In this document: positions 14,663-46,403 of the stretch, piece after piece
How the letters are laid out: each line of letters opens with the position of its first letter
Numbering within the stretch: the stretch's first letter is position 1
Assembly: GCF_001632365.1 (NCBI RefSeq)
Contig: NW_024468568.1
Location: forward strand, 91,777 to 155,776
Source of the DNA: Laetiporus sulphureus 93-53
Taxonomy: Eukaryota; Basidiomycota; Agaricomycetes; Polyporales; Laetiporaceae
Reading direction: 5' to 3'
DNA length: 64,000 nt
The notes under the pieces: model-generated
The model's input: the letters and a program-made list of their open reading frames with translations, nothing else
Database searches by the model: none
What the model was told of the DNA's origin: nothing
Translations under genes and position numbers: made by a program

Positions 14663-17600
14663 TCATATACAAATCATGGGCCGCTCTCTATGCGAGCTGT
14701 CGGATGCGACGGCCCCGTTGCCCGTGCCCGTGCCCGTGCCCGTACGCGACGTGGACGGTCGGCGCGTGCGCACTTCGAGGCGCACTTGATCCTCGTCCTC
14801 GCTCTCCTCGTCCTCGTCATCCTCATCCTGGTACATCTGACTTGTGCTAGGTTGGAGCTCCATGTCATCGTAAGAGAGAATAGATGAATCAGAGTCGTGG
14901 TCGTACGAGCTCGAGGTGTCCGAGTCGTGACGTGACAATGCCTGTTCGATGCTAGGCTGCACGATCTTGCACGAATGCGCGAGCGGGCTGCTTGCCCGCG
15001 GCCGGATTTGACTCTGCCGGGCTGCATCCAATGCTGCAGGGTCGGGCGCTGACGCGGGCTCGCCGACGTCGGTCCGCTGAAGAAGTGCGTAGGCAGCCGA
15101 TATAGTAGGCGGCGGTGAATGTCCCAGACTTTGAGAGCTCATGGACGACACCGTGCTGAGCAGGCCACTGGGAATTGACGGGATAGGGCTTTGTGCGACG
15201 CCGCCCGCTCCGAGGAGAAGGGTCTCGTCATCCAGCTCGTCCCCTCGATCCCCCGAATACAAGCTCGTCACGTCCTCCGACGGCCTCCCGTAATCCGCGA
15301 CCTCACCCCAGCTCGCTGCACGCATCGCAAACGTAATCGGCCCGCTCGAGTTGCTCCTCCGCGACGGCACTGCCGCATTGAACGCGTCCTCACTCCGCCG
15401 CGCAAGCCTGCCGCGTCCTCGGATGCTCCTGCTGCGTCGTGGTGTTGATGACCCAGTCTCTGGTGTGGCGGCCTGCTTCCGCCAGCCCCGCATCCAAGGC
15501 CACGACGAGAGCGACAACCGGCTCCTTGGTCGGTCTTCCAGTGTCGAACTGTCCCCGCTCGGTGTCGACGCCTGGCTGCAAGACGCCGGAGATGGCTGCG
15601 GCGAGCCTAGTCGCAACGGCTTCGGAGGTACCTCGAGCGTCATGCCGGGCATCTTGGACGGAAACGACCCGCGCCGCTGTTTGTACATATGTGGCGCATG
15701 CGTCTGGCCAGACGACGATGACCCTAGCTTGTCCCACATCTCGAACGGCTCGAAGCTCGACCCATTCTTCAACAGGTGCGGGCTCACATCGGGCGTCGAC
15801 TTGTTGCGTGACACATCCATCCGGCGCGACTGCCGCTGCTTGCCCTTGTCCCGCTCGAGTGGCTCACGATCCCGTGAGGACGCCTGCCGGTGGGGTGCAC
15901 CGGTCGCGGTGCGGTGCCGGACGAGCGATGGCGCGGAGCGCACACCGACGTTCTTCGTCTCGTCCTCGCGCGGCGTGCTCGAGCTCGACCACGGGCGAAC
16001 GTTCCGCCAGAAGTGCGTGATGCGGTTCGCAACGCCGGACCACCGGAAGCGCACGGAGGACATGGCCGAGCTTGTCTCGTCGGCGGTGACCTCGAGCGAC
16101 GACTGGCTTCCCTTGAGCTCGGTCTCACGCAGCCACTGCTGTGGATTCTGCAGGTCGCGTAAGATCCACGGATGTCTCTGTATGCGCGCATACAGTCAGC
16201 AATTACCGCGTATATCCGCGCATATACCCACACACCTTTACTTCATCGAGCGTGATCCGCTTCCTCGCGTCCTTTTCGAGCAGCCGCTCCAACAGGTTGA
16301 CAACAAGGTATCCCTCCGTCTCTTCACCCTTCTTCTGTGGCTTCTGATGCCGGCCGCCGGTCGGGATCTGGTCGACGCCCATATACGGGTCCACGTCCCA
16401 GTCTTGCCGTCGGATCACCTGGAAAATCTCAAACTCGTTCGCCGCGCTGAACGGCAGGTGCCCGAAAAGCAGTCCATACAGCGTCACGCCGAATGCCCAC
16501 ACGTCGATCGCCTTCGTAATCGCGGGCTTTCGCCGCGGTGCAGAGAGCTGCAGCGTACTTGACGACGAGGAGGCCTCGACTGATGTATCGGTTACAATTT
16601 CGGGTGCGAGAAACATCGGCGTGCCTGCGGTCTTTGACAGATCCGAGTCGTCCATCAGAATAGGATCCTGGTCGTCTGGGTCGATCGACCCTGATCCAGC
16701 CGCGGCGAGTCGCTGTGCATAGGAGAAGTGTGAGACACCAAAATCAGTGATCTTGACAGTTCGTCGGTCGGCGGACCAGAGCAGATTAGCGGGCTTGATA
16801 TCGCGATGAATGATACCTTGGTGATGCACTGCACATCGCGCCAAGCGAAACGAGAGAACGGTAGAAGTGAGCGCTGGTAGTCAGCAACTGCGTTATATGA
16901 CGAGCTCTGAACAGCTCACGGTACTCAAGACCCAAGATGACGTCTCGGCATATTCGTCTTGTCTGCTCCACACGCAGGACAGGCTCATCGTTGGCGGTGC
17001 GCCACTTGATCTCACCGCCCTGCAGGTACTCCATGACTATACATAGGTTGCTCACATGTTAGTTCATATCTAAATATGATTGATAGAAGCCACGCGCTTG
17101 CTCAGCAAGGTAGCAATACGGTTGCACGGGCGTATTGCAGCCGTGCTATCATGGGTGGATACCCCACATCGGTCCCGCATAGCCAGTACCGCCGTCACGA
17201 GGGCAAACATACAGCATGCGAGTGCACGCACCGTGGGCAGGCAGCGTACAGGAGACAGCGACGACGAACTCGAGCGAATGAGACGTACCCATGTAGATCT
17301 TCTCTGACAGATTATCATCGATGACTTCGAGCAATCTGACAACGTGTGGATGGCGACACTTCTTCATTATCGCAATCTCCTTGCGGATCTTGTGTTCAGT
17401 GCTGCCTAGCTGGTCCGTGAGTGGGAGGTGGGGCTGGCTGGGCAGCTTGCGCTTGCGCAGTTGGCTCAACCGGTCCTGCCTGGGATTCTTCCGTTTCACA
17501 ACCTTGATAGCCTGCACACACACGCACGCATGCACACACACACAGCCCACACGGGCACACACAGACGGCCACACGTCAGTCACGCACCCTCAGAATGTGG

Positions 17601-20997: not shown

Positions 20998-22871
20998 TCA
21001 TTTTGAGCCCTTCGCCAGCGCCTTCCGCGCATCGAGTACGACCCTTCGCAGGCGGCGCAGCGCTTCGTCGACCTCCTCCGCGGGCAATAGGCTGAACGAC
21101 GCACGCACATATGCCGTGCGACGTCCGCTTGGATAGAATGTCGTACCGGGCAGCGCGAGTACACCCCGCTTCAGCGCGATCGTCCGTATGAGGTCCTCTG
21201 AGTCGTCTTCCACGTCCTGCCCGGCGCCTGGCTCGCTAAGCAGCAACTTGAACCTACCCACACGCATACATATTAAGTGAACTGCAGGCGAAAATGAGAA
21301 GCAGACAACCACACACCAGAAGAACATCCCCGCCTCGGGCGTACACCACTCCGCGAGGCCCGCGAGGTGCCGCTGCATTGCGGCCTCGAACACGTCGCGC
21401 TTCGCACGATAGAACTCCGCCACGCGCGCGGTGTGCGCGGAGAAGCCCGCGTAGCCCCATGAGGAGAGGACCTTGTGCGCGAGAACCTGCGAGAAGGACG
21501 AGGGCTGCAGGTTCACCATCATGCTCTACGCGAATGAATATCATCTGTTGGCAGCGAAGGGGGAGGGCTCGGAGAACAGGGGGACGTACGTGCACTTCCA
21601 TTGCCTTGAGGATGGGCTCGGGCCCGGTGGCGAAGCCGATTCGAATGCCCGAGGAGAGAATCTTCGAAAGGCTGTCGAATCGGAGCACTCTGCCTACTTC
21701 TGGCTCGGACTTCTCGAGAGAGAAGTAGGACGGCGGACGGCTGGCAGCACCGTAGTAAAGGTTGTAATATGGGTCATCTATAGTACGTCAAGCGAATCAA
21801 CATTGTTGATCTGTTTGATTGTATAGAGAAAGGCGGCACCTTCGAGGATTAGGAAATCATGCTCTCGGCTGAGCGCGAGCACCTCTTTGCGGCGCTCGAC
21901 GGTCGCCGTGACGCCAGTCGGATTCGAGCCGTACTACTCCAGATCACACGTTACCTTCCGTGACGCACGGCAGTGCATGGTACCGACTTACGGGTATGGT
22001 GTACAAGACTTTAGGCTTGGGTTTTGATGCGGGCCAGCTCTCCAGCATCGTGCGCAAGGAATGCGAGCAAATGCCCTGGGCATCAGTGTGGACCTCTGCG
22101 AATGTAAGTTTATCTGCACTCTCTAGATACGCTTAGAGTTGTCTCACCAATCATGTCGCATTCGAGCGCATGGAAGATAGGGAGGACGCCTCTGCGAAAC
22201 AGGCATAGGAAGCACGCTGAGAAGTTCAAGAATCGCGACGCACGCGTATACAGGTGTCTCCACGAACATCGCATCGCCGGGGTCCAGCAGCGCGGTCGCA
22301 GCCTTCACGGAACATAACATCCAGAATCAGCCCGACGATACATTAATGTCCCCCACACAAACGCATACCTTGAACAACAAATCCTGCGATCCCGCGCCAA
22401 CGCTCACGCCCCACCCTTCGCCTTTTCCCCGTGCATGCAAGTACTCCTGCAGGCCAAACATCCACTCGCGCAGATCGTGGAAGCCGGAGGTGGGGCCGTA
22501 TTGCATACCTCGGTTCAGCTCCTCCTCGGTCAGCTCCATCTTGACATCGCCTCCCGGCCTGGTCGGGTCCCGCATCGTGAACTGGAGGGATGTGATCGGG
22601 AACGTCTCCGCGTTGGGCTTTCCCGCGAGCAGCGAGATCAGGCCGGGACGGCTCTCCAGCGGGAGCAGCGCGCGGACTACAGGCGGGTCGCATCACGCAC
22701 GAACACTGAAGATGGAGGCGCCGACTTACTGCCATCTTCCCGACGGCTGCGGGCTGCCTTGGAGAGGCGGGCAGCGTAGAACTCGGGCGGAAGCACGTTC
22801 AGCGGCACTTTTGAAAAGGGATCGCTCTTGTGAGTACCGTCGCGGGCAGAAGGGCCGTTAAGGTGTGTCAT
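20998..22871 (-). CDS. PLP-dependent class I/II aminotransferase, ARO8/AADAT-like (copy 1)
   Basis: Nine exons (22871-22730, 22676-22369, 22302-22244, 22191-22148, 22095-21992, 21933-21840, 21777-21590, 21525-21317 and 21253-20998) give 467 residues. The fold-type I motifs are clear: LISLLAGKPNAETFP near the start, SVGAGSQDLLFKA, TPVYAG, the cofactor-contacting YGSNPTGVTAT, LEDDPYYNLYYG, and the lysine that forms the Schiff base in RFDSLSKILSSGIRIGFATG. The C-terminal domain has EAGMFFWFKLLL and ALPGTTFYPSG. The family transaminates aromatic amino acids, kynurenine or alpha-aminoadipate; the substrate cannot be read from sequence. A paralogue with the same organisation lies at 44553-46403. 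Confidence 0.93.
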
Positions 22872-23518: not shown

Positions 23519-24917
23519 ATGGCCTCTCGCCCCACCGTCAACGTGCGCTCGACGACTGGAGGTTCGTCGGCCATAAGGTCATAGCGTTAGAAGGAGCTGA
23601 TTTGCGTGTCTTTTCGTGGATAGAGGCGTCGAGCTCTCTCCCCCTGCCCGCGGTCCTCACCGCCCCGATTAGGCTCGATGTCGTGCAGCAAGTGCATAGT
23701 GAGTAATATCAGTATTTTTGACAAGCTGGTCTCGATGTCTCGCGCAGAGAGCATCGCGAAGAACAAGAGGCAGGCGTACGCTGTCAGCGAGAAAGCCGGC
23801 CACCAGACCAGCGCCGAGTCCTGGGGTACTGGTCGTGCCGTTGCGCGTATCCCCCGTGTCGGTGGTGGAGGAACCCATCGCTCCGGCCAGGTACGCACCA
23901 GTCAGCAATGCGCGAGAACTCGTAGCTCAAAGTATGCGTTAGGCTGCGTTCGGCAACATGTGCCGCGGCGGTCGCATGTTCGCACCCACCAAGACCTGGC
24001 GCAAGTGGCACGTCAAGGTGAACCAGGGCCAGCGCCGTTTCGCCGTCGTTTCTGCGCTCGCAGCCTCTGCGCTTCCGTCGCTCGTCCTCGCTCGCGGCCA
24101 CCGCATCGAGGAGATCGAGGAAGTGCCCCTTGTCGTGTCCTCTGCGATCGAGTCCTTCGGGAAGACCAAGGAGGCGGTCGCCCTCCTCAAGTCGCTCAAG
24201 GCGTACAGCGACGTCGTCAAGGTGTCCAACTCGCGCAAGCTCCGTGCCGGCAAGGGGAAGATGCGCAACCGCCGCCACCGCCAGCGCCGTGGCCCGCTCG
24301 TCGTGTACAACGAGGACAAGGGTATTGTCAAAGCCTTCAGAAACCTGCCCGGTGTCGAGCTCGTCAACGTAAGGAGACTCAATCTTCTCCAGCTTGCGCC
24401 TGGCGGTCACCTTGGTCGGTTCGTGATCTGGACTGAGGGTGCGTTCGGCCTCCTCGACGAGGTCTTTGGCACCTTCGACAAGCCCTCCATCCACAAGAAG
24501 GACTTCATGTACGTGATCTCCTTCACGATTTCTGTTGGCTCAGTTCTGATCTCGATTTGTGCTACAGCTTGCCCACCGCCAAGATCAGCAACCCCGACGT
24601 CACTCGTTTGATCAACAGTGACGAGATTCAGTCTGTCGTTCGTCCCGCTGGCCCTAAGCACCAAAATCGCCCTTGGACGCAGCACAAGAACCCTCTGGTC
24701 AACAAAGGCGTTCTCTTCCGCCTGAACCCCTATGCAAAGACTCTCCGCAGGCACGAGCTTCGTACGTGTTTGCTACCTGACATTCACTGTGAATCATTGA
24801 TTCTCAGCCTCCTTCACAGTCAAGCAGGAGCGCGTGAAGAAGCAGAAGGCGAAAGCGAAAGCGAAGGCGCCCAAGTCTGCTGGCGAGACCTTCTTGAACA
24901 CACTCCTCGCCGTCTAA
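23519..24917 (+). CDS. RPL4: 60S ribosomal protein L4 (uL4)
   Basis: Six exons (23519-23561, 23624-23698, 23748-23890, 23943-24508, 24568-24761 and 24808-24917) give 376 residues. Conserved uL4 blocks are all present: [47 protein letters not shown], the internal-loop [40 protein letters not shown], and the eukaryotic extension with [13 protein letters not shown] at the end. The extended loop reaches the peptide exit tunnel. The length is normal for a fungal uL4. Short 46-62 nt introns fit the local style. The start was chosen by homology. Confidence 0.97.
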
Positions 24918-26652: not shown

Positions 26653-28245
26653 TTATCCGTAGATCACCAGATAGGACGGTCGGACGGCATCGTTGGTGTA
26701 CACCACTAGCTCGTCGTGGTTGAGAATGCCACCTTTCTCCGCAAGTACCTAGACAGATGTTTGAGATGCAACCTCAACAAAGAAAAGGCAGCTGCTCACC
26801 GAATCAAACCCGGCTGGTGGTGCGGTAAGTGAAGGTTTATCCATCGTCAATTTATGTCCCTTCCCCACCACGACCTTGTTGAGGAGCACAGCTTTGTAAG
26901 GTGATGCGGTAATGTTCTGCGAGTAATCGTTTGATCTAGCATCTGCCAATGAGTTTCGGACATCGCTTGCATGCGGATCGGGTACGTACTTGGACGACGT
27001 GGACGATGTATAAATGCCAGCGCCGAATCTTTCAATGTTTTGCCACGTCAGCAAGACGACAGTCCATTGGCGACGTAAGCTAGGCGTACCTTCCCCATCC
27101 TGTTTTCTTGGCGAAAAACTTGAGGTCGAACGACGTTTTAATGATGCAGCACAGAGAGCAAGTCGCAGACGAGCACAATTGCGCATTACTGTTGTCGCCG
27201 AGCGTGCATTCACGTCTCGTCCCATGCCACCGTCGGTTCTCGTTGCCTGCAGGCCGTCCTGCAGCCACGAAATTACCGCGGCTCTCGACCGCCGCCCTAC
27301 GAACTCATGTGATCAGTCTCATTCTGCATATAAGTATGGCGCGCTCCGTACTTGTATTGCTCGTATTTGTCTTGAGACGTCTTCGACTCCACAATCTTGT
27401 AAATATATCTGACGGTGGGGCACGGAGTAGCATGTCTCCACGAAGATTTGAATTGTTCAGCAACTGCCGCCAACTCGTCAATGACTCGTCGGATACAACC
27501 TGATCATCACACCGACCGCTCTTGTAGACGGCATGACCCTCCGGAATCTCGAGGAGCACTATAGCGTGCTTCTGCGCTTCTGCAGCGCACGCTCTTGAGC
27601 AGTAGTGGAAAGTGCCTTGTTTCGGCCTCTGAAAGCACCAAAGGCATGCCGTCTCTCCCAGACTGAACTGAAGTCAGCAATGCAGCGTTGCGCGTACAGC
27701 AGTGGAACACGTGAACGTACTTTTTATGCGCGTTTGTGCAGTACTTTCCCGTGCCATTGGCGGATTTGAATGCTGGTTTATTGCAACCAGGCAGCAGGCA
27801 TAAGCCGTTCGCTGTCAACCACATGAAGTGCGTGCAGGGCAAATCGCTAGCAACCTACTAATGGCATTCTTATTGATGGTATTTCGTTGTGGTGTGGCTG
27901 GCTTGTGTTTGCTGGCGCACGTTCGACTACAAAACTGGTGTTTCCGCGTTCCGTCAGTAAATTGCGGCCGACTCTTGCAGACCTAACATTGAGTGACATG
28001 TCTACTCGTCAACAGTTGATGAGAAGACTAAATTCTTGTACATACAATGCACATTGTTGCGTTAGTGGGCAAGGATTTCCGAGAGGATGCAGTGTTTGCA
28101 CACTGCTTCCCGCAGTAAGGATGCGTGTAACCGGTGCTCTCCACATACTTCGGGCGAGCACGACATTCCTGAGACCACGTCAATCCAATTGAACACTCGT
28201 CGTAAATGCTATTGTACATACCTCGCAAACATTGAAATTAATCAT
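26653..28245 (-). CDS. PARP-like ADP-ribosyltransferase with three zinc modules (PARP A)
   Basis: Nine exons (28245-28222, 28168-28046, 27854-27721, 27662-27517, 27484-27352, 27296-27090, 27028-26990, 26935-26800 and 26748-26653) give 345 residues. Three Cys-rich modules come first: CEECRARPKYVES with PYCGKQC, CLLPGCNKPAF with YCTNAH, and CLWCFQRPKQ with YCSRAC. A linker (SSWRHATPCPTVRYIYKIV) leads to a compact PARP catalytic domain with WHGTRREC, RFGAGIYTSS, KAVLLNKVVVGKG and DELVVYTNDAVRPSYLVIY. The HGT histidine, the tyrosine of GIY and the glutamate of DELVVY form the H-Y-E triad of active PARPs. The target is unknown. The acceptor before exon 3 and the very short intron before exon 5 are the least certain. 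It is divergent from PARP C. Confidence 0.82.
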
Positions 28246-28742
28246 TCCAAGGATGGCATTGACTGGCAGTGTGGAATTTTCATGAGCACGAGGGTGCGTT
28301 GGGTAAGTCGCAGTCAAACGACGGTAGCAAGTCACATAGTACTACATGCGGAACTCATCGCTGCAGAATCAAGTGCTGAGACGTACCATTGGCCATCGTA
28401 CAACAGGAAGGAACTGAAATGCAAGCGATTGCGCGCAAGTAGAGCTCAGCGAGGATGATGGCGGCCGGCACCTAGCTAAGGAGCACTGATGTACATGAGC
28501 CCGTATGAGAAAGGAACTTTAAACTTCAGCGCGCACCTGGCACCTGCAACACGCCTTTCCCGCATTGTTTCATTGTGTTAGTCACTTCTCCGTGAACGAG
28601 GAGAACGCGTGCCAATTCCTCATCCAGGTAGTACATTAAGACGGACGCAACCTTAGTCGCATCCTCAAACTCAACGATGCAGTTCTCTCTCAAGTCTGTG
28701 ATCGGGTGGGGTTCTTCCTCTGATGCACCGGCAGCGGACGGT
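28246..28742. promoter_or_regulatory. shared region between the starts of PARP A and PARP C
   Basis: The two PARP genes start head to head 497 bp apart, so both promoters lie here. A segment near 28536-28610 resembles 34030-34105 (see that entry). No clear TATA box. Confidence 0.45.
28536..28610. repeat. copy 1 of an unexplained ~75 bp island repeat
   Basis: It shares TTTCCCGCATTGTT and flanking bases with 34030-34105. Read on the plus strand the copies translate to related peptides (HLQHAFPALFH and HLRHTFPALLH), so they may be remnants of a coding segment. Confidence 0.45.
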
Positions 28743-29939
28743 ATGTGCGAGGTAAGCGTGGAATCAATTCGTCGCGGCGCGCTCATTCATGTATGTTTGT
28801 CAATTGAAGACATGCCATATCCGGCCGAAGTACGTCGAACATGGACGTCAACATCCGTATTGCAGCAGGACATGCGCGAGGGACGGCCACAACCGCGCTT
28901 CCTCCTGCATGCTGGAAGGGTGCCGGGAAGAAGGGGACCCTGCACAGGGCGGGTTCTGTTCTGAACAACATGCCAGGTGTGTGGCAATCTCCACGAGGCT
29001 GGCGGAAGCTGATAGTACGTACAGAGATGCAGTTCGATCGAAACAACTGAAGGCATGCACTAGCTGCCGTTGGCGCCCCCGGACTGTAGGCATGCTATGC
29101 GCATCATGCAGCGCGAAGACTAGCTCTGGCCCAGCTCTGATAGAATTGAGCTCCGAAGGTAGGACCTTCCGGCGCGGTGCGTCCTGACTGTAGCAGTCTG
29201 TGACGTTCTCGACTTATCAATGCGCTAGTTGCCGATGACTTCCTTCGTGCATGGAAGGGCAACGATCCTCCCTCCGTACGAAAGGTTGTGGAAATACAGC
29301 TGCCTCAGGAGATCCGCACGCGGCACTATCAATACCGGTAAGTTTCAACCTTTTCTACCCCAAAACGTGGACCTAACCCAATCTCAGCAAGGGCTTAGAG
29401 TCCACTTCAGCAATCCGAGAGGTGCCTACTTATCATTCTTCGCAATGCATCTGCGACTTCGGAGTAAAAGACCTCTGCCTCTGCAATTGGGATTCGTGCG
29501 GAATCTGCAAGATCATAAACTCGTCCTTCTCCGAACTCGCCTTCGGTGATACGTACGATAACGGCAGGTCAGTGTGCAGATAACATCCGAACGTTCTCAG
29601 CGCTCATGTTACACGCCGTGAGGAAGCTTGGGGCGGGGGATCTACTCATCCCGCAGTTCTGCGAGCGCAGATCAATTTGCGACATCCTCGACCACTTCTC
29701 CCTACCGTGCAATGCTTGCTTGCACTGCTGTGCTTGGGGATAAGCCACGAGATGCCAAATCGCCCTCGACATCTGTGAATAATCTCGCTGTGAGTCGAGC
29801 CAGTGCAAACTCGATCTATTCTACTGAATCATCGCGCGATTAGGATGTCGACGGGGATCGAGTCTTCGTCAAAAATGCCGACGCAATTGTTCTCAAATAC
29901 GTGATCCTATATTCCAAACGAACCGACCAGCGATCATGA
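28743..29939 (+). CDS. PARP-like protein with zinc modules, active site degraded (PARP C)
   Basis: Seven exons (28743-28751, 28810-28976, 29016-29158, 29229-29337, 29388-29567, 29627-29789 and 29844-29939) give 288 residues. Zinc modules match PARP A: MCETCHIRPKYVEH with PYCSRTC, CMLEGCREEG with FCSEQH, and CTSCRWRPRTVGMLCASC. The linker VADDFLRAWKGNDPPSVRK and the catalytic-domain exons follow in the same order. The HGT motif is replaced by YHSSQC, the Tyr site survives in GRGIYSSRSSA, and the glutamate of the third motif is replaced (DGDRVFVKNADAIV, Arg at that site). Two of three catalytic positions are thus lost, and the protein is probably not an active transferase, though the frame is intact and it may bind ligand or partners. 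Its stop is 39 bp from that of PARP B. Confidence 0.75.
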
Positions 29940-29978
29940 TACGTAATGCACAATATGTACATTTCTGGGAAGCAATGA

Positions 29979-31110
29979 TCAGATACCAAACGGTGCCAAT
30001 CCAAAGGGTGCCAATTGCAATGAGAACAATTGGCGTAAGTAGTCCGATGGAGTTGAACCCACGCCGGGGACGAAGGGAACGGTTCCGTGTCCCAACATCA
30101 TCGGGAGGTCAAAACGCACGTCTCCCATACAAGGTTGGGTGTTGTCGTATACAAAGATGTAGCTGGGCCGTATGGCCTCATTCGTATAGACCACCGTCTC
30201 CTCATAGTTGAGGTCGTTTCCGGGAACCCCAATGACAGAGTTATATCCAACCGGTGGCGCGGTTAGATTGACAGCGTTCCCCTCTAATTCCTTGGGTCGA
30301 CCTGTGATGACGCGACTCAAGAGAAGTGCACGCGTCCGAGCGTTCTTCGAAACGTTTTGCACATAGTCGTCCGCCTCTTTCATGGACACAATAATGATCA
30401 ATAACGAGCAGCAGAAGAGGGACAGAATTGGGTGCGCACTGGAAGAGCATGAAGTAGTGTAGATTCCCGCACCGAACCTGCAAAAATGAATACTGCTGCA
30501 ATTGAAGCTTACGAGTTACGACACACCTGCTGAATGCGTTTTTGAGTCCTGGAAGCGATCATTAGAGCTGCGAACAAACGTAGCGATCATAACCTTACCA
30601 CAACATTTAACGTCAAAAGATTCACGAATGATCTTGCACAGGGAACACTGCGGAAGATTGCAAGGTAGCGTATTATAAGGGGTATCTCCCAATAAGCACG
30701 CTCGAGTTGTACCGTGAAAGAGCAGTTCTTCAATCGCTCTTTCACGAGACTGCGAAGGTAAACATCCCGATTGCGATAAGGCCTCCCTGAAGCCTGATAT
30801 CAAAGAGATGGATGTATCAAGGAGCATATGGTCTCACTTATAATCAAGAAATGGTTGAAGAGCTGATGGTGGATATGTCACCTTGTAGATGGCCAGCACG
30901 CGAGGCCGTCCCTTCGTTTGGTGCTTCCAGCCCCTGTAGAATAGCATCTCGACTGCACAGCAGCTTATCCGCTTGCCATAGAGCAACGATGGCCAGGGAA
31001 AACTCACGCTCCATGTATTCAGTTCCAATAGGTTGCAGCTGAATTAGTCGGACCTGCCCATTGTTTGCCAGAGAAGCACTGAGGAAGATTTCAAAACAAA
31101 ATGCGGCCAT
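29979..31110 (-). CDS. PARP-like ADP-ribosyltransferase, zinc array not recovered (PARP B)
   Basis: Supported exons are 31110-31008, 30952-30838, 30786-30599, 30548-30527, 30477-30440 and 30376-29979, giving 287 residues. The linker (FYRGWKHQTKGRPRVLAIYK) and catalytic domain align exon by exon with PARP A. The active-site positions are kept: FHGTTRACLLGD, RFGAGIYTTS and LNYEETVVYTNEAIRPSYIF. A 50-residue Pro/Gly/Leu-rich tail follows, absent from A and C. The start used is the first in-frame Met. The true 5' end is unclear: upstream there are only broken zinc-module-like pieces (CWLCNTSR near 31180) and an exon-like segment DLQQHLGHE before a donor near 31450 that also occurs at 34.6 kb. The gene may therefore be N-terminally decayed or spliced from further upstream. 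Confidence 0.72.
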
Positions 31111-31690
31111 TGCATGTCTGCCCGCTCCAACATCTAGCCTCTAACATGCTAGGCCTTTATATTCACCGAGAGGTATTGCATAGCCAGCAGTGGCAAGGGA
31201 ACGTTGCCTCACTGGCAACTCGTGGACTAATTGCAGCCAGATTGCACATCATTTCTGAGGGGTTCGGCCACCAGCGCACTGGGAGAAGCGAATCAGGCAT
31301 GGGCGCTTCAGGCTACGGCCGCCATACCTCAGTTTAATCGAACTTAGTAGTACATAGAACCAGCTGGTGCATTCTCCACGTTGGAATCGCACAGTGACCA
31401 CAACGACACGTGTAGGGACGGTCTCCCGTTACCTCGTGTCCAAGGTGCTGCTGCAGGTCACAATTCGCTCGGATCATGGGGCGCACGACTATCTTTTTGA
31501 GCTTGATGAATACGGTTCGTCTCATCCTACTCGAATCATGCGCGACACAAGCCAAGTCGTTGTCTCGAAATCTAACAGCTGCTCGACGGGATATCCTGTC
31601 ACTACTAGGGCCCCACCGCAATACACTGTCGGAGACCAACGCACGGTTCACATACATGGCGTACACTCAGATCGAGTAAACAGTGAAACA
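31111..31690. promoter_or_regulatory. 5' region shared by PARP B (-) and NADAR 1 (+)
   Basis: It contains possible remnants of PARP B zinc-coding exons on the minus strand and the promoter of NADAR 1. The NADAR 1 frame is open upstream to 31367 without a better start. Confidence 0.4.
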
Positions 31691-32557
31691 ATGAAGTATA
31701 CTGATACGCCAACGAGAGTACGCGAACCTGTGCGAATTCTCCGCCGATCTCATTCCCCGCAGGAGCAAGATATGTCTGGCAATCATGAGCACCATGAATC
31801 CTCTTCAAGTCGTTCTGCGCTCCTTATTTCCTCGCGCAAGGATCCGGATTGTACGACATCGGAGAGATCCAGGCCGTCGGCCACAGCTGACTCTCCACAA
31901 CGCCTCACAAGTGTTCGACCTGTCATACACTTCTATAATAAAAACGAGCCCCACTACGGTTTCACGAACTTCTCCCCACATCCCGTAAAGTACGACGAGA
32001 AGCAATACCCGACAAGCGAGCATCTATTCCAGTCCTTCAAGGTGATTACATGCATTCCATCACGATGATCATTCAATGCTAACCCCTGACAGTTTCAAGG
32101 CCGGTGGCCTGGATTAGCAGAGCACATCAGGACATGTTCAGATCTACCGAGTGTTGCATTCTCGGAAGCGCGTCGCTTCCAGCCACAAGTTCGGAGTGAC
32201 TGGATCGACGTGAATATCGCGAAGGTATGTGCCAACCTCTCTAAGTACTTATGAGTTTATCCAATCTAGCACAGATGGAAGAGACGTTGCGGCACAAATT
32301 CACGCAACATTCCGCGCTCAAGGAAGAATTAATCGCAACTGGAGATGCAGAGCTGGTGGAGGTTGGTCGCAAATGCTGTGAGCGTTGACCGTTGGCTTAG
32401 CGTTCTCGCACAGAATTCTGCCGAAGACTCATTCTGGGGAATTGGAGCCGATCGTAAAGGGCGGAATGAACTCGGGAAGGCGCTAGAGAGATTGCGTGCC
32501 CAGTTCCGCGAGGCGCAACCTCGGATTCTCGTTGAGGCTGATCCCATGATGGAGTGA
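31691..32557 (+). CDS. NADAR (YbiA/DUF1768) domain protein, copy 1
   Basis: Four exons (31691-32041, 32093-32224, 32275-32361 and 32414-32557) give 237 residues. After about 75 disordered residues comes a complete NADAR domain: IHFYNKNEPHYGFTNFSPHP, YPTSEHLFQSFKFQGR, PSVAFSEARRFQPQVRSDW, KFTQHSALKEELIATGDAEL and DSFWGIGADRKGRNELGKAL. Bacterial YbiA and the NADAR partner of the toxin DarT1 belong here; NADAR enzymes have been shown to remove ADP-ribose from guanine bases, and YbiA was also reported to act on a riboflavin-pathway intermediate. All conserved blocks, including SEH, the F-W-G-I-G motif and GRNxLG, are present, so activity is plausible. Its neighbour is divergent PARP B. Confidence 0.85.
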
Positions 32558-32684
32558 GGTTCTGGACGGTTCGCACTTTGATAGTCACTGTATTATGTAC
32601 CACAGCCCCAACATGCGGCTCGCGCGCGGTGTTCGAAGGCAATGCTTCCCACAGGCGCGAATGCGTTCCTGGCTGGAACAACAG

Positions 32685-32692
32685 TATTTAAG
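32685..32692 (+). promoter_or_regulatory. TATA-like element before zinc protein 1
   Basis: TATTTAAG lies about 50 bp upstream of the ATG at 32738, in the short gap after NADAR 1. Confidence 0.4.
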
Positions 32693-32737
32693 ATAGCTGT
32701 CTAGTACCACGCATTACACTACCGACTTTGTACCACC

Positions 32738-33774
32738 ATGTCCGCTGCAGTCGCACGTAACGGCCTCTGTGATGTGAGCGCGATCTGAAATGCAAAAGAC
32801 AACGCACGTTGACATGCTCCGATTGTCTAGAATTGCCACCAAAAGCCAAAGTTCGGTGGCCACCCTTTCTGCAGCAAGACCTGCGCAGCACAAGCTAATA
32901 CTAATCTCTGCGTCGTAAGTGTCTCAATCCAACCCTTTTTTTCTGACCAGAAAGCTAACTCGTCGACGCATAGCAATGCCGCCAGAAGCCCAAGTATAAG
33001 AATTACGACTACTGCGGGAAGACATGCGCCGCTCAAGCAAAAGCGAAGGCACACCAGAAGCCCAATGGTGGCAACACGAATACAGCGCCCCGAGCACCGG
33101 CTCACAAGACTGCTGCGCCGACGACAGCGGTTGCTCCTGCGAAGGCGCAGCAATGGCCCAGTTCTCGACCTCCGGGTATGCGTCTATGCGATATCTGCTT
33201 ATTGTGAATGCTAATACATCAGTTACAGCGCAACAATCTCACTTCAAGGCTCAGATTCCCCAGCCATCGTCTGCCCATTTCACTGTGGAGGTTACCTCAA
33301 GTCGCGAACCAAGCGTCACCCCCGGCAACTCGTCAACTCAGACTGGCCGCCAGTTTCATGCATCGTTACAGGGAGCGTACCATCGAGGCTCGTCTACTGC
33401 CAGTGGTGATGCGGGAACGGCTATGGAGCGTTCGGACGACGACGATCTCATGACCTTCTCACCGACCTATCCTCCCGCCCGTGGTACGAAAGCGGTGCCA
33501 AAGCGCACTCAAGTGACGTGTGCTATTCCCGGCTGTGACAAACCCGTATACATCGATGCGTCTGGGATGCAAACGAGTGATTACTGTTCAATGAGACATC
33601 GCGAGTACGTTACTCGGTTCACATCGGTCCCATTCATATTTTGACTTTCTTTGGTTCAGAGAGGCTGTCAAGTCCGGATTCGCCGAGCCTTGTATCATGT
33701 GCGGAAAGTGGCCGCAAACGAAAGGCGATTACTTCTGCAGCAAGACCTGCAGGGATGAATCTCTGAGCAAGTGA
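32738..33774 (+). CDS. protein of four Cys-rich zinc modules, copy 1
   Basis: Five exons (32738-32773, 32831-32914, 32974-33175, 33229-33604 and 33660-33774) give 270 residues. Four modules share the pattern C-x2/4-C-x(10-18)-C-x3-C/H: CDNCHQKPKFGGHPFCSKTC, CVQCRQKPKYKNYDYCGKTC, then CAIPGCDKPVYIDASG with YCSMRH, and CIMCGKWPQTKGDYFCSKTC. A disordered Ala/Pro/Ser-rich linker separates modules two and three. These are the modules that precede the PARP domain in PARP A and C, so this looks like a PARP zinc array without the enzyme. The function is unknown; binding of nucleic acid or protein is possible. It follows NADAR 1 by 180 bp on the same strand, and the pair is repeated at 34.9-37.1 kb. 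Confidence 0.78.
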
Positions 33775-34933
33775 ACGGGGAGAATACGGTGTAGGGTCAC
33801 CTATTCACAGTATCGTTGAACGTTTGAAACCTCGACCTGCCTTTGCTGGTTTGCCTGTGTATAACTTCATACTATCATGCAGTCAGTTGTGTGCGCAAAA
33901 ATCTATGAGCGAACATTTGTCAGTCGGGGACGCGGAGCGTCTGCACTGGACTACACATGGAGCTGTGACGTGGTGAGCGCATCTTGTGAGATCTGCATTT
34001 GCGCTAGGCATCACTTAGCAGTACCTGCTACGTTCACCATGCACTTGCGGCACACTTTTCCCGCATTGTTGCATCGCCTTGACAGTAACTGTGAAAATGC
34101 AGCAGGCGCCTGCCAGTGCCCATCATCCAATTCTTCCCAGCCTCGGCGACGCACTTTTCGAGTCGAAATCAGAGTTAACGTGCAAACGCTTTCGAAGGAC
34201 ATCACCCGGTAGTCACGTATCATGCAAACCTCGCGATAGCCCACGATCGACGGTCGTTTTTCATTACCAGTGAAATGACCGCTGCTGAGGCCAGCAGCAC
34301 ACGAGCTCAGTGTTAATATGCCGTGGCGAACAAATGAGATGGAGTACTGGTCGAAGCATTGAAGCTGAAGCGTTGAAGTTTCATAATTTCAAATTTCAGT
34401 TCAGTAGTGATGAGCGCTTACTGTCGTTTGCTCTTCTCACCGCTGCCGCCACTGTCCGACACCCTTCAAATTCCAAAGTCGAGTCAAGGGCTAGGGCATA
34501 CGAGCATGTATGTTGTCATTAGGCCATCTATGAGAGCTGGTTCAGGGCCTTTGCATGATGGGGAGCACGTATGTGGACAGAAGTGTCCTGTTACCTCATG
34601 GTTTGAGGCATTCTGCTGCAAGCTGTACAGCATGCAATTACAGCTCGATGGGAGCCAAATACATGCAGTATTGCCTTCATGCCTCTCGAGCTGTTCAGAG
34701 AAGAGCTCATCATCATCACTCTCCATTGCGTACCTTCCCCTTGCCCAAATGAGCGATTCGGGCCCCATCTTGTTCCGGAATCTAATAGCTATCTGATCAG
34801 ACCTCCACTTGATTTGTTCGCCGCGGAGTGTATGCGGGACACTGTCGGACACCGCTGCGAGATTAACGTCAGCAGCGTGCCTGCAAACCAATTAAACCGT
34901 GAAGCAGCGAAGCAGCGATTGAAGCTCGCTGAA
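33775..34933. pseudogene. remnants of a PARP-type 5' part upstream of NADAR 2
   Basis: No complete gene was found. On the minus strand near 34600-34650 an exon-like piece (YSLQQNASNHE before GTAACAGG) matches DLQQHLGHE before GTAACGGG upstream of PARP B, at the same place relative to the NADAR gene. No catalytic PARP exons follow. A second repeat copy lies at 34030-34105. The region looks like the decayed counterpart of the PARP B 5' end in the second tandem block. Confidence 0.4.
34030..34105. repeat. copy 2 of the ~75 bp island repeat
   Basis: It matches 28536-28610 around TTTCCCGCATTGTT with roughly two thirds identity over the length, judged by eye. Confidence 0.45.
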
Positions 34934-35954
34934 ATGCCACCGCTGAGGGAACCTCACGGCGTGCGATCGCGCCGCCGAACCCAATCACTGCAAGAACGGC
35001 ATGCACCTAGAATCTACACAGGATACGAGCCCTATCCCACTCGTCCCGACGTGCGCCAAACTCCGAGTCCGGCAGTGTTGAAGAAACCCAAGACTTCACC
35101 TACTTACACGACAACTGATCCGCTGGCACGTGGCCATACAACTGTCGAAGCCTACCATCCATCGCGGCAGCCAAGCGTACCTCAGGTTAACAAAGACTAC
35201 AAGCGCTCTTCTACTAAGTCCTATCCACCCGTTGCTTCGCGCAGGCATCCTAGTCCGACGGTACCCGAAAAACTGTTGGCTACGAACTCACAAGTCATAC
35301 CCCCGCGTAATCCAACGACTCGTGACAGGCGTGAAATACTATTTTACCATAAGGACGAACCGCATTATGGATTTACGAACTTTTCACCGCATTCTGTGAC
35401 GTACGAGGGTAAACGATACCCAACAAGCGAACATTTGTTCCAGTCTTTCAAGGTATTGCGTGTGAATTCATCATAGTGGCCACTGTCATGCTGATGAAGC
35501 ACACGTCGACAGTTTCAAAGACGATGGCCTGGTCTAGCAGAGCATATCAGGACGTGTTCAGACAGACCGAGCGTGGCATTCTCCGAAGCGCGTCGCTTCC
35601 AGCCACAGGTCCGGAGTGATTGGTTGGAGGTGAATATCGGCAAGGTGAGCACTGGTGTCCTTAACTGTTTGAGCACGGCGTTTGATGTGACCGCCTGTGG
35701 CGCAGATGGACGTGACATTATGGCACAAGTTTACACAACATCGCGCCCTAAGGGGTGAACTGCTTGCGACCGGCGATGCAGAGCTGGTAGAGGTTCGTTG
35801 TCTGTAGCGTTAATCTCAACAGTTCGCTTACGATCCTGGACAGGACTCAGATAAGGACTCATTTTGGGGGATAGGTGCAGATGGCAAAGGGAGAAATGAG
35901 CTGGGAAAGGCGCTGGAGAGACTTCGTGCAAAGTTCCGCGGAGCGCACTTGTAA
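34934..35954 (+). CDS. NADAR (YbiA/DUF1768) domain protein, copy 2
   Basis: Four exons (34934-35452, 35513-35644, 35706-35792 and 35844-35954) give 282 residues. Exons two and three have exactly the lengths of copy 1 (132 and 87 nt), and the protein domain is nearly the same: EPHYGFTNFSPHSVTYEGKR, YPTSEHLFQSFKFQRR, PSVAFSEARRFQPQVRSDW, KFTQHRALRGELLATGDAEL and DSFWGIGADGKGRNELGKAL. The N-terminal region is longer (about 130 residues, Pro/Arg-rich) and has diverged freely. The open frame continues upstream to 34679, but homology to copy 1 favours the Met at 34934. Conserved NADAR residues are intact. It arose with its downstream zinc gene by tandem duplication. Confidence 0.85.
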
Positions 35955-36187
35955 TAACTATTTGAGGCTAGTCTCCATGAAGGAACGAGTTGCGGGACAA
36001 CCTCGTGCTCTGATTCGTTATGTAGTAGTAGTTCATCGTGTTCTCTCGAGACGTGTTATAAATGATAATGTCTAATGTCTTTGACGCGGAAGACAAGCCT
36101 GCCTGATTGGAACGTCGATCATTTCTGCTTATAATTGTAATTGGCTGTATGATTTTAATCTAGATATCCCTCTGGTTCTACACCAAC

Positions 36188-37092
36188 ATGTCCGCTGCAG
36201 CAGTTGCTAACATCAGCTTGTGCGATGTAAGATGCGGATTTCTGCGAGCAGAGGATTTACTGACAAAGCGCAATCATCTAGCATTGCCATCAGAAGCCGA
36301 AATACGACGGCCACAAATTCTGTGGAAGAACTTGCGCGACACAAGCTACTCAAGGAAACCTCTGCATCGTGAGAAGCTTGAAACCAGAACTGTTCCGCTG
36401 AGGGGGCTGAGTAGACGATGTCGTGGCCTACAGCAATGCAACAAGAGGCCTAGGTTTGGTAACCATGACTATTGCGGGAAGACATGCGCCGCTCAAGCCC
36501 AAGCAAAGCAGAAGCCAACCGCTGCTAGAGTCAACGTCGCGTTTGGGACACCAATCCAGGGAACTGCGAACTCTGCTGCAAGGGCCCGTGGGCAGGCTTC
36601 GCTAGTCGCTTGTCAGTAGCGTTGTCGCCATTCTGATGATGGGATTCTGCTGAGAACCGCGCTTACAGCCCAGGATCTAAATAGGAGCTTTTCGTCAGAA
36701 GACGACTCCGGAGATGATGCGGAGGATGACCCCGTCATCCCTCCTATGAACGTCTCCGAGGGGCACCAGTCCCCACTTCGTAGTACTACATCGGCTAGTC
36801 CGACTGCGGCTCAGGCACCAGCAATTTGCGCCATCCCGGACTGCAACGAGCCAGTATACGTCGACCCTGCGGGACTCCAGACGAGTGAATACTGTTCGAC
36901 GAAGCATCGCGAGTACGTATTTATTGCTGTAATTCAAGTCGCTGCTATTACTCAGTGTCTGGTCTTCTGCGAATCAGAGAAGCCGTGACGTCTGGGCTGG
37001 CCACCCCTTGTATCATGTGTGGGAAGTTGCCACAGAGAAGAACCGACTACTTTTGCAGTAGAGCCTGCAAGAAGGCATCTATGAGCAAGTGA
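36188..37092 (+). CDS. protein of four Cys-rich zinc modules, copy 2
   Basis: Five exons (36188-36226, 36282-36368, 36434-36611, 36669-36912 and 36978-37092) give 220 residues. Both copies begin MSAA and place introns at the same points. Modules are CDHCHQKPKYDGHKFCGRTC, CIQCNKRPRFGNHDYCGKTC, CAIPDCNEPVYVDPAG with YCSTKH, and CIMCGKLPQRRTDYFCSRAC, ending KKASMSK. All ligand positions are kept, while the linker between modules two and three has changed and is acidic here (SSEDDSGDDAEDDP). Exon 3 ends in the middle of a codon at 36611, and the donor GTCAGTAG is weak but needed to avoid the TAG inside it. The role is unknown; see copy 1. Confidence 0.76.
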
Positions 37093-39254: not shown

Positions 39255-40247
39255 TTACACATGGTTGCCCATTTTACTTTCAGCTTCCTCACGTCGCTTG
39301 GCTGCAGCTGCCTTCGCTTCACTGAGAGGCTTGCTCCATCTTGCCTCAGGAGGGTCCCAGATACCAAGCTCCTTCTTCATATCTTCTACGTTCTGCTCCC
39401 ACCGCTCTTCCCAATAGACCGAGATCAAGCTTTTCGCACTGCTTCCACACTTGACTGCCCAGGGAACAAACTCCCTAAAAAGCTTCGCGCGCTTGGCGGA
39501 CGACAACCGCAGATGCCCAAAGGCCGCGGCAAGGCCTGTCATAGGTAGTCCCAAGTTGGCAAATTCGAAGAATTTCACCGCAAGCTCAGACTCGATGTTG
39601 ACTGGGAGATTGCAGATACAGTGGTAGAAATCGTGGCATTCCCGGTAACGCTGCAGCACGTAGGCAAGCTCCGGGTCGTCCACGTAGTGTACCTGGACAA
39701 TCGCTTAGCGAAACCCGAACAACACATGGAAACGGAGATATGCACGGGTTCGCGGGTATCCGGTGTGACACCGCAACGATCAAGCCACGTTATGTATGCG
39801 CGGCCAAAGGTGCCATCGGGGAGCAGAGACAATTTGTTCATGTCTACAGTGTGTGAGTTCACTCGTGGTCGTTCCTTCAGGATTCTGCGTCCCTCCGCGT
39901 CATTGAGCATGGTATCTCGTAGACGGGGTAGTACCGGTCCTGACGTGACATCTCCGAGAGCAGCAACCATATCTAAGGACATGTACTTCAGTCACATTTG
40001 AGTGTTTCCATTGCAGACACAACCGACCTCCTCTTCGAGGATTCGCAAGTGCCATGAAAGCCGAGCCGACCATCAGGAAACCAGTTTCGAACCAATTGAG
40101 CGGAATGTGGCCTTCATATGCGGGCTTTGTAGCGGCGGTACGCATGTGCCATGGCTGCAAGGTCACGGGAGTTGATGCAGGTGCAATAGCAGCAAGTCTG
40201 GCTTTGTAGGGGCGGATCCCGCGGAGAGTTTTGGCTAGGATACTCAT
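39255..40247 (-). CDS. COQ4: ubiquinone biosynthesis protein COQ4
   Basis: Three exons cover a complete COQ4. The N-terminus (MSILAKTLRGIRPYKARLAA) looks like a mitochondrial presequence. The family blocks follow: HIPLNWFETGFLMVGSAFMA, DMVAALGDVTSG, GRRILKERPRVNS, LPDGTFGRAYI and VTPDTREPVHYVDDPELAYV. The metal-binding motif HDFYH lies in YRECHDFYHCICNLP, and EFANLGLPMT follows. COQ4 lies on the matrix side of the inner membrane, organises the coenzyme Q complex and has been shown to act in ring decarboxylation and hydroxylation. The usual HDxxHx(11)E pattern is met by HDFYH with a Glu downstream (NIESELAVKFFEF). Introns fall before DMVAAL and before VHYVDD. Confidence 0.94.
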
Positions 40248-44552: not shown

Positions 44553-46403
44553 ATGGTCAAGAGTCTCCCACCAGAGTTCTACACTGCCTACCTCTCCGAT
44601 GTTGCAAAGGAACGCAAGCCGAGCCCGAGTGCGTTCGTGATCCAAAAACGCGACTGCAATACCTGCTAACGGAAAGTTGTGGCAGTTCGTGGACTCTATC
44701 CACTCGAGGCCAAGCCAGGCGTGATATCCCTGCTTGCCGGAAAGCCCAATGCGACCACATTCCCGTTGACCTCCATCAAGCTGACATCGCGTTCGCCCAC
44801 GGACCCGTCGCAGGAAACTGAGACGGAAATGAGTGGGAAGGCATTAGCTGAGGGCTTGCAGTATGGCCCGACGGCAGGGCTGCCTTCGCTGGTCGAGTGG
44901 GTGTATGGGCTGCAGGAGAGACAGCATGGCAGGAAGAAGGGCGAGGGATGGAGGGTCAGCATCGGGGCGGGGTCGCAGGATGTCATTTACAAGGTGAGTG
45001 ATGAATTCAGAGGAGCCGATTTTTGAGTTACGAATCGTTCCGTTGGCAGGCCGTGATGGCTATGGTGAACGTGGGGGATCCAGTGTTGGTGGAAAGTCCG
45101 GTCTACGCGTAGGTCTGTGCTTGTAATGTCTCCTGAGCCCCATCTGACCTAAATGCAGTGGAGTGCTTCCAATGTTCCAGGCGTTGCACTGTGACTTGAT
45201 TGGTGAGTGAAATTACGTCTCATTTCGTGTGAGCGTATCAATCTCATCTTCGTTATAACCATCGATGACTACAGAGGTCGAGACCGATGCGCATGGTATT
45301 CGCTCCAGCGCCCTCCGCCAGATACTGGAGAACTGGCCTGCATCGAAGCCCAAGCCAAAGGTACTTTACACGGTACCGGTGCGTGTCATAACAAACTCTC
45401 CAAACCACTTGTTCCTTACAGGCCGCATATTGATCAAGTATGGCTGTAATCCAACTGGAATGACCGCCACTCGGGACCGGCGGCAGGAAGTGTTCGAGCT
45501 CGCTCGGGAACACGATTTTATCATTCTTGAAGGTGAGCCTTTCGCTCTTGGCTTTTACTATCTATGACTTGAACTCGACCACCTTGCGCAGACGACCCTT
45601 ACTACTATCTCTACTACGGCACTGCTCCACGCTATCCATCCTATTTTGCGCTCGAACTCCAACAGCCGAATGCGGAGGTCGGACGCGTACTCCGCTTCGA
45701 CAGTCTCTCCAAGATCCTCTCATCCGGCATCCGGATCGGATTCGCATGTGGCCCAGAGCCTCTGATGACGGCGATTGACATGCATGTGCGTGCTTTGGCT
45801 TTCGGGTCTCACACATTCGTTACGTTATGCAAATGGGCTTTTGACCGATGGACGATCCATGACAGACCGCTGTTGCGAACCTGCAGACGTCTTCACTCAC
45901 ACAGACGATCACGCATGCACTACTCGATACATGGGGCTACGACGGGTTCAAGACGCACACGGAGACTGTGTCCGCATTTTACCGTGAGAAGCGAGACGTG
46001 TTTGAGAGTGCGCTCAAGCGGCACCTCAGCGGGCTTGCGGAGTGGAGCACGCCCGAGGCCGGAATGTTTTTCTGGTGCGCTTTGCTTGTTTTGCTTTACT
46101 CGCTTGCACAAATGACCCTAACTGGCCCCGATCTGTTCTGGCGTTTTAAAAAACAGGTTCAAGCTGCTATTGACAGAAGACGCGGCATCGTCCGACGACG
46201 GCGACTCAGAGAGTATCATCCGGACAAAGGCGTACGAGCGGGGTGTGCTCGCGCTGCCGGGGACGGTCTTTCTTCCCAGTGGAAGGAAGACGGCGTATGT
46301 AAGAGCAGCGTTCAGCTTGTTGACGGAAGAGGACGTGGAGGAGGCGGTGAAACGGCTGAGGGAAACGGTGTTGGAGGCGAAGCAGTCGGCGGGGAGCTCT
46401 TGA
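44553..46403 (+). CDS. PLP-dependent class I/II aminotransferase, ARO8/AADAT-like (copy 2)
   Basis: About nine exons encode a full-length paralogue of the gene at 20998-22871. It starts MVKSLPPEFYTAYLSDVAKE without the longer leader of copy 1. Shared blocks are PGVISLLAGKPNATTFP, VSIGAGSQDVIYKA, YGCNPTGMTATRDRR, LEDDPYYYLYYG, the PLP lysine in RFDSLSKILSSGIRIGFACG, and EAGMFFWFKLLL. The C-terminus ends EAKQSAGSS. The intron positions correspond to those of copy 1, including the split of the Trp codon in FFW. Enzymes of this group act on aromatic amino acids, kynurenine or alpha-aminoadipate; the substrate is not deducible. The start is the first Met in the exon and gives a normal family N-terminus. 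Confidence 0.92.

What the first reader, a model, noticed from the sequence alone, without database searches (positions are those of the whole stretch)
26653..37092. ADP-ribose island: PARP-like transferases, NADAR eraser-like proteins and shared zinc modules in one 10.5 kb block
The sequence shows three PARP-like genes, remnants of a fourth, two NADAR genes and two multi-zinc-module proteins, with no unrelated gene between them. The zinc modules of the stand-alone proteins are the same type as those that head PARP A and C. NADAR enzymes are known to remove ADP-ribose from guanine, and bacterial DarT1-NADAR pairs are toxin-antitoxin systems. It is an inference that this is a fungal writer/eraser conflict or defence system; I know of no described fungal version.
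Basis: partly seen in the sequence, partly recalled or inferred. Interest (0 to 1): 0.9.

Follow-up and report, generated by a model that had tools for sequence, protein, structure and literature searches.

The report
Conserved mushroom PARP–NADAR–zinc-finger gene block
Three kinds of gene, an enzyme that should attach ADP-ribose, an enzyme of a family that removes it, and a zinc-finger protein sharing the first enzyme's targeting part, sit together in this bracket fungus and lie on the same contig in most other mushroom-forming fungi that could be compared, which suggests an undescribed reversible ADP-ribosylation system.

Summary
The block is real. In Laetiporus sulphureus 93-53 (identified by a 100% protein match), seven gene models fill 26653–37092: PARP A and B with intact H-Y-E triads, PARP C with a broken one, two NADARs, and two proteins (ZN1/ZN2) with PARP A's four zinc modules in order but no catalytic domain. 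The "fourth PARP remnant" is not supported beyond one 95-base DNA match.

The co-location is not coincidental. A second PARP–NADAR–PARP island lies on another contig of this genome. Among named hits, PARP and NADAR share a contig in 34 of 40 species (about 2 expected), PARP and ZN in 43 of 51, NADAR and ZN in 40 of 51. H-Y-E is kept in 120 of the 120 best PARP homologues; the NADAR Glu and Lys in 118 and 120 of 120.

Best reading: a vertically kept ADP-ribose writer/eraser/adaptor module. The substrate is unknown; guanine in RNA or DNA is the leading guess, since that is what tested NADARs reverse. A toxin–antitoxin or defence role is possible but untested. Main rivals: flavin damage control by NADAR, and passive microsynteny, for which no control could be run.

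The parts
26653..28396 (-). PARP A: four zinc modules (CxxC..CxxxC, CxxC..CxxxC, CxxxxC..CxxxH, CxxC..CxxxC) followed by a PARP catalytic domain with H-Y-E (RWHGT / GAGIYTS / DELVVY)
28677..29939 (+). PARP C: three zinc modules plus a degenerate PARP domain (His and Tyr kept, Arg at the catalytic Glu site); probable pseudoenzyme
   Evidence: 7-exon open model; PF00644 16.3 bits, below cut-off; site table
29979..31110 (-). PARP B: catalytic domain with H-Y-E, zinc array lost or eroded
   Evidence: 6-exon open model; PF00644 45.6 bits; 39% identical to PARP A in the catalytic part
31538..32557 (+). NADAR1, YbiA-type, catalytic Glu and Lys kept (SEHLFQSFK)
   Evidence: 4-exon model from 31691, in-frame alternative start 31538; PF08719 122.4 bits; the annotated P0138 of Laetiporus is its last 210 residues
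32738..33774 (+). ZN1: four zinc modules collinear with PARP A's, long linker between modules 2 and 3, no catalytic domain
   Evidence: 5-exon model; annotated P0241 differs by two residues at one intron junction; hhalign of ZN to PARP N-terminus E 1.9e-32
34832..35954 (+). NADAR2, YbiA-type, catalytic Glu166/Lys173 kept (numbering of the model from 34934)
   Evidence: 4-exon model from 34934, in-frame alternative start 34832; PF08719 122.4 bits
36188..37092 (+). ZN2: paralogue of ZN1; NADAR-ZN is a tandem-duplicated unit
   Evidence: 5-exon model; blastn 65% over 31898-33048 versus 35313-36508, E 5e-118; the annotated P0242 is a different, shorter model that retains the last intron
34035..34129 (.). 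95-nt stretch resembling the sequence upstream of PARP C (28534-28626); the only trace of a claimed fourth PARP
   Evidence: blastn 69%, E 6e-5; no protein-level remnant

Best explanation
The block is a copy, amplified in Laetiporus, of a linked three-gene module of mushroom-forming fungi (Agaricomycetes). The zinc-array PARP uses NAD+ to attach ADP-ribose to a target chosen through its four zinc modules. The linked NADAR removes that ADP-ribose, or a by-product of it. The ZN-only protein carries the same targeting array and competes for, or scaffolds, the same target. Shown here: gene structures, linkage, shared zinc array, conserved catalytic residues, predicted PARP fold. Inferred: that writer and eraser act on the same mark; that the mark sits on guanine in RNA or DNA; the role of ZN. 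I do not infer that it is a toxin-antitoxin system.
For: Contig sharing: PARP-NADAR 34 of 40 species (1.96 expected with a 40 Mb genome), PARP-ZN 43 of 51 (1.74), NADAR-ZN 40 of 51 (2.68), all three on one contig in 23 of 31; with contigs under 500 kb, 18 of 18, 18 of 23 and 17 of 22. Of 12 species with plain serial locus tags for two of the families in one tag series (names), 11 have them 1-18 tags apart on one contig. Second island PARP D-NADAR3-PARP E on contig C67 among other neighbours (named by eye). H/Y/E 120 of 120; NADAR Glu 118, Lys 120 of 120 (these are the best 120 of 425 and of 729 hits, a choice that favours intact proteins). ZN array homologous to the PARP array. dN/dS about 0.12-0.14 for NADAR1/2 and ZN1/2 (dS near saturation). 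PARP fold. Tested NADARs, including a eukaryotic one, hydrolyse guanine-linked ADP-ribose (PMC11543638, passages), also on RNA (PMC11833690, passages), and a YbiA-family NADAR is an antitoxin for a linked H-Y-[E/D/Q] ART (PMC11125620, passages).
Against: No activity data. Six of 40 species do not share a PARP-NADAR contig, eight of 51 not PARP-ZN, eleven of 51 not NADAR-ZN. Among plain serial tags, Leucoagaricus sp. SymC.cos is a counter-example: PARP AN958_03408 and ZN AN958_05737 on different contigs of 46 and 55 kb. One Laetiporus PARP of this family (F, C17) has no NADAR hit in the 20 kb fetched around it (only a weak ZN1 match about 5 kb away, E 5e-4), and one NADAR (C20) has no PARP hit in its 18 kb. 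NADAR also scores above cut-off for the riboflavin-intermediate N-glycosidase family, and far below the cut-off of an anti-phage NADAR model (66.7 against 240 bits). I saw no ZN-only gene in the C67 island. No control gene pairs were tested for synteny.
Confidence: 0.6

Rival explanations
1. Passive microsynteny: the genes stay together only because this chromosome stretch (between RPL4 and COQ4) is rearranged slowly; ZN and PARP are tandem duplicates and NADAR a bystander.
For: RPL4 and COQ4 flank the block. ZN and PARP share ancestry. Flank conservation in other species could not be tested.
Against: A second PARP-NADAR-PARP island lies elsewhere among other neighbours. Linkage is seen in Agaricales, Polyporales, Jaapiales and, for PARP-ZN, Hymenochaetales. 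The NADAR-ZN unit was duplicated and both copies kept.
Confidence: 0.2
2. Housekeeping flavin chemistry: NADAR is a YbiA-like N-glycosidase of reactive riboflavin intermediates and has nothing to do with the PARP's product.
For: TIGR02464 99.7 bits against a cut-off of 73.7 (P0138); closest solved structure by sequence is E. coli YbiA, E 1e-22; [quoted passage not shown]
Against: Does not explain conserved linkage to a PARP, or two islands. YbiA-family NADARs also hydrolyse guanine-ADP-ribose in vitro.
Confidence: 0.2
3. Toxin-antitoxin or defence system: the PARP damages nucleic acid or arrests the cell on infection, and the NADAR protects self. This is a special case of the writer/eraser reading, so its odds overlap with it.
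For: Architecture resembles DarT1-NADAR and YarT-YbiA. Local amplification and decay in Laetiporus: PARP B 39%, PARP C 27% identical to PARP A in the catalytic part, PARP C catalytically broken.
Against: Linkage kept across orders rather than patchy. The PARP fold is tankyrase/PARP-like, and only PF00644 was reported for PARP A-C. No infection link was looked for or seen.
Confidence: 0.22

Closest known systems
DarT1-NADAR (DarTG1) bacterial toxin-antitoxin
   Same: ADP-ribosyltransferase gene linked to a NADAR hydrolase gene
   Different: Here the transferase is a zinc-array PARP, not recognised as DarT; the NADAR is YbiA-type (Glu) not BC4488-type (Asp); eukaryotic multi-intron genes; a third zinc-only gene; linkage kept across several fungal orders
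YarT-YbiA toxin-antitoxin of myxobacteria
   Same: YbiA-family NADAR beside an H-Y-[E/D/Q] transferase
   Different: YarT is described as a small globular bacterial toxin (PMC11125620, passage); no sequence relation to YarT was tested here
Animal PARPs (tankyrase, PARP3; zinc-finger PARPs such as PARP13, recalled)
   Same: PARP catalytic fold with H-Y-E; zinc modules attached to a PARP domain
   Different: The four-module array matches no Pfam family above cut-off; four invariant Cys lie between the triad His and Tyr; the gene is linked to a NADAR
YbiA / TIGR02464 riboflavin-intermediate N-glycosidase
   Same: NADAR domain, family score above cut-off
   Different: Gene neighbourhood is PARP and zinc proteins; a conserved N-terminal segment precedes the domain in the homologues

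Membership tests
PARP/ARTD (PF00644) | Pfam score above cut-off | tested here: met
   PARP A 53.2, PARP B 45.6 bits (cut-off 26.7); PARP C 16.3, not met for C
PARP/ARTD (PF00644) | H-Y-E catalytic triad | tested here: met
   PARP A, PARP B and 120 of 120 best-scoring homologues; PARP C has Arg at the Glu site
PARP/ARTD (PF00644) | PARP catalytic fold | tested here: met
NADAR superfamily (PF08719) | Pfam score and catalytic Glu and Lys | tested here: met
   122.4 bits both; Glu 118, Lys 120 of 120 homologues and in NADAR1-3
NADAR superfamily (PF08719) | Hydrolysis of guanine-linked ADP-ribose | not testable with these tools
   shown in the literature for other members only
DarT1-NADAR toxin-antitoxin | Transferase of the DarT family | tested here: not met
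   Only PF00644 is reported for PARP A-C at E up to 1; that Pfam holds a DarT family is recalled, and HMMER's filters can drop weak matches
DarT1-NADAR toxin-antitoxin | BC4488-type NADAR with catalytic Asp two residues before the conserved Glu | tested here: not met
   Leu at that position in 119 of 120 (the other a gap) and in NADAR1-3; equivalence to D171/E173 of E. coli C7 NADAR inferred from the spacing in the paper
DarT1-NADAR toxin-antitoxin | Toxicity of the transferase rescued by the NADAR | not testable with these tools
   needs expression experiments
YarT-YbiA toxin-antitoxin | YbiA-family NADAR (Glu) linked to an H-Y-[E/D/Q] transferase | tested here: met
YarT-YbiA toxin-antitoxin | Transferase homologous to YarT | not tested
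   no YarT sequence was fetched
Riboflavin-intermediate N-glycosidase (TIGR02464) | NCBIfam score above cut-off | tested here: met
   P0138 99.7 bits, cut-off 73.7
Riboflavin-intermediate N-glycosidase (TIGR02464) | Activity on flavin intermediates | not testable with these tools
   biochemistry needed
NADAR family anti-phage protein (NF053876) | NCBIfam score above cut-off | tested here: not met
   P0138 66.7 bits, cut-off 240
Known zinc-finger families for the four modules | Pfam score above cut-off or structural match | tested here: inconclusive
   ZN1: zf-CGNR, DZR_2, zf-FCS, ZZ all below cut-off; ZN2: none; Foldseek against PDB with the P0265 model: 16 matches, none at E up to 0.001, with MYND and YacG among the weak ones

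The most novel reading that the evidence does not exclude
[quoted passage not shown] As far as my searches go, this would be the first eukaryotic writer-NADAR pair.
Probability: 0.3. Interest if true: 0.9.

Novelty: new variant of a known kind. Interest (0 to 1): 0.77.

Why it matters
The physiological roles of NADARs across eukaryotes are described as unclear (PMC11125620, passages). A PARP genetically tied to a NADAR gives a concrete writer to test, in organisms that include the laboratory mushroom Coprinopsis cinerea, whose PARP (CC1G_11638) and ZN (CC1G_11642) tags are four apart. It would make the question whether eukaryotes use reversible base ADP-ribosylation directly testable, and it points to a protein family (ZN) whose 120 listed members carry no precomputed Pfam domain.

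Tried and rejected
Fourth PARP remnant: tblastn of 360 homologues plus the seven models against the exon-masked window gave weak scattered matches outside the island and, inside it, one match that is the intron retained in the annotated P0242; no PARP remnant. Only a 95-nt DNA similarity remains.

Zinc fold: the P0265 model is poor (pLDDT 65, pTM 0.28) and its PDB search has no significant match. The giant-virus lead (BFVD hit A0A3G5A324, 'NADAR family protein', Harvfovirus, E 1.7e-7 to the PARP A model, TM 0.09) was not followed to its sequence. Viral-contig scans with the ZN and PARP alignments matched 27 and 93 stretches and confirmed no relative. A scan with the NADAR alignment kept 80 of 144 confirmed loci; 5 of 80 had any module-like motif, none convincing. 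A scan of prokaryote contigs with the PARP alignment matched 78 stretches and confirmed none.

PARP E was read only frame by frame. Splice models of PARP A and ZN2 were wrong at introns and corrected.

Contig-sharing counts use rows with an NCBI name only: 91 of 120 listed PARP, 84 of 120 NADAR, 99 of 120 ZN rows; unnamed metagenome rows and two UniRef-only rows were dropped; the lists are the best 120 of 425, 729 and 199 hits. Some species that do not share a contig mix two assemblies: Taiwanofungus (tags AcV5, AcW1), Ephemerocybe (DFP72DRAFT, D9611), Amanita muscaria (JOM56, M378DRAFT); others may have lost a linked member to the cut at 120. Chance values assume 40 Mb genomes. Locus-tag distances: I compared plain serial tags where two families of one species carried the same tag series (12 species: 11 close, Leucoagaricus not) plus Jaapia (JGI-style, 4 apart); other JGI-style tags run from adjacent to far apart, are not reliably positional, and were left out.

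Paper searches for a fungal PARP–NADAR pair; listings only, except passages read from PMC9503650, PMC11543638, PMC4245714, PMC11125620, PMC11833690 and PMC10789625.
Full report
What is there. The window lies on contig C59 of a 38.6 Mb, 124-contig genome. The PARP A model matches at 100% identity 'ADP-ribosylation [Laetiporus sulphureus 93-53]', so the host is this polypore (Polyporales). I built seven gene models by hand with GT-AG introns of 47–70 nt and no stops: PARP A (-), PARP C (+), PARP B (-), NADAR1 (+), ZN1 (+), NADAR2 (+), ZN2 (+). The annotated P0001 adds a 5' exon to PARP A across a 124-nt intron. Pfam finds PARP in A and B above cut-off, in C only below it, NADAR in both NADARs, and nothing above cut-off in the ZN proteins. 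The block lies between a ribosomal protein L4 exon (23943–24608) and a COQ4 exon (39258–39704).

Anatomy. PARP A is four zinc modules plus a PARP domain with the triad H231, Y282, E347. PARP B keeps the triad but not the zinc array. PARP C has three modules and Arg in place of the Glu, so it is probably a pseudoenzyme. ZN1 and ZN2 contain the same four modules in the same order as PARP A; profile comparison of 60 ZN with 56 PARP sequences gives E 1.9e-32 over all four. PARP A, PARP C, ZN1 and ZN2 also share the intron inside the first CxxC (my reading of the models). NADAR1–ZN1 and NADAR2–ZN2 are an old tandem duplication (65% DNA identity) with dN/dS about 0.12–0.14, though dS is near saturation.

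Within the genome. Searches with PARP A, NADAR2 and ZN2 found, outside the window, PARP F on C17, two PARPs (D, E) and NADAR3 on C67, and NADAR4 on C20. On C67 the order is PARP D (+) 40.65–42.55 kb, NADAR3 (-) 43.07–43.75 kb, PARP E (+) about 45.8–47.7 kb. So 5 of the 6 PARPs of this family and 3 of the 4 NADARs found are co-located; these counts are lower bounds by the tool's own statement. PARP F has no NADAR hit in the 20 kb fetched, only a weak ZN1 match (E 5e-4) about 5 kb away; NADAR4 has no PARP hit in its 18 kb. NADAR3 keeps the catalytic Glu and Lys; NADAR4 has Leu at the Glu position. Random placement puts two of three NADAR loci within 10 kb of a PARP locus in 8e-6 of two million trials. 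Another Pfam PARP match exists on C9 (39.2 bits), not analysed further.

Across fungi. Homologue searches returned 425 PARP, 729 NADAR and 199 ZN hits; the best 120 of each are listed with contig length. Using contig length plus species as a fingerprint, and only rows with NCBI names, PARP and NADAR share a contig in 34 of 40 species (1.96 expected for 40 Mb genomes), PARP and ZN in 43 of 51 (1.74), NADAR and ZN in 40 of 51 (2.68), and all three share one contig in 23 of 31. With contigs under 500 kb the figures are 18 of 18, 18 of 23 and 17 of 22. Sharing a contig is not adjacency, so I looked at locus tags. Twelve species carry plain serial tags of one series for two of the families; in 11 the distance is 1–18 on one contig, for example Hypsizygus NADAR 014877 and ZN 014878, Leucocoprinus PARP g10027 and ZN g10029 on a 15.9 kb contig, Amanita phalloides PARP 007645 and NADAR 007648, Coniferiporia PARP 007672 and ZN 007675. 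The exception is Leucoagaricus sp. SymC.cos, with tags 03408 and 05737 on two contigs of 46 and 55 kb. Jaapia's JGI-style tags differ by 4, but such tags are not reliably positional. Orders looked up: Polyporales (Laetiporus), Agaricales (Hypsizygus), Jaapiales (Jaapia), Hymenochaetales (Coniferiporia, PARP–ZN only); others are recalled.

Interpretation. Linkage of an intact PARP to an intact NADAR, repeated in two islands of one genome and kept across several orders, is best explained by a shared pathway: PARP writes, NADAR erases, and the ZN protein shares the targeting array. Which mark is meant is inference. The NADARs tested in the passages I read act on guanine-linked ADP-ribose in DNA or RNA (PMC11543638, PMC11125620, PMC11833690), so guanine is the leading guess; well-studied PARPs mostly modify proteins (recalled), so a protein mark or a small by-product is open. 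My estimates: linkage real 0.97; same pathway 0.6; guanine substrate 0.3; defence or toxin–antitoxin role 0.22, overlapping with the others. Passive microsynteny stays open at 0.2 because no control pairs could be run.

Known or new. ART–NADAR pairs are known in bacteria (DarT1–NADAR; YarT–YbiA). Here the writer is a zinc-array PARP, the host is eukaryotic, and a third family is attached, so I call it a new variant of a known kind. No paper describing it was found (open-access library only, so subscription papers may hold it).

Noticed in passing
window 21001-21787 (-) and 45573-46405 (+): Two aminotransferase-like ORFs of similar sequence (..VGRVLRFDSLSKILSSGIRIGFA..) in opposite orientation on either side of the island; Pfam found nothing in the three pieces submitted, so the name is my reading.
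   Followed up: partly
C67:43067-43746 (-), in L032: NADAR3 of the second island is preceded by an ORF beginning with a hydrophobic, membrane-anchor-like segment; whether it is the same gene is unresolved.
   Followed up: no
C20:248952-249608 (+): NADAR4, without a PARP hit in the 18 kb fetched, has Leu where the catalytic Glu stands, so it may be inactive.
   Followed up: partly
C17:288159-288326 (-): Weak ZN1-like match (29% identity, E 5e-4) about 5 kb from PARP F, possibly a further zinc-array gene.
   Followed up: no
P0121-P0125 (Mycena species): Several Mycena NADAR hits score far above the rest (342-383 bits, proteins of 307-397 residues); P0121 shows two NADAR copies in tandem; the others were not inspected.
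   Followed up: no
NADAR homologues P0121-P0240, N-terminal part: A conserved segment (consensus YRIEERxRTxYVTSDxxPSQWDxxxLN) precedes the NADAR domain in many homologues and looks eroded in both Laetiporus NADARs.
   Followed up: partly
BFVD A0A3G5A324 (Harvfovirus) against the PARP A model: A giant-virus protein named NADAR family matches the fungal PARP model with E 1.7e-7 at TM 0.09, possibly through zinc modules; its sequence was not seen.
   Followed up: no
window 16206-16880 (-) and 47917-48441 (-): Protein kinase and ALG9-like mannosyltransferase fragments.
   Followed up: no
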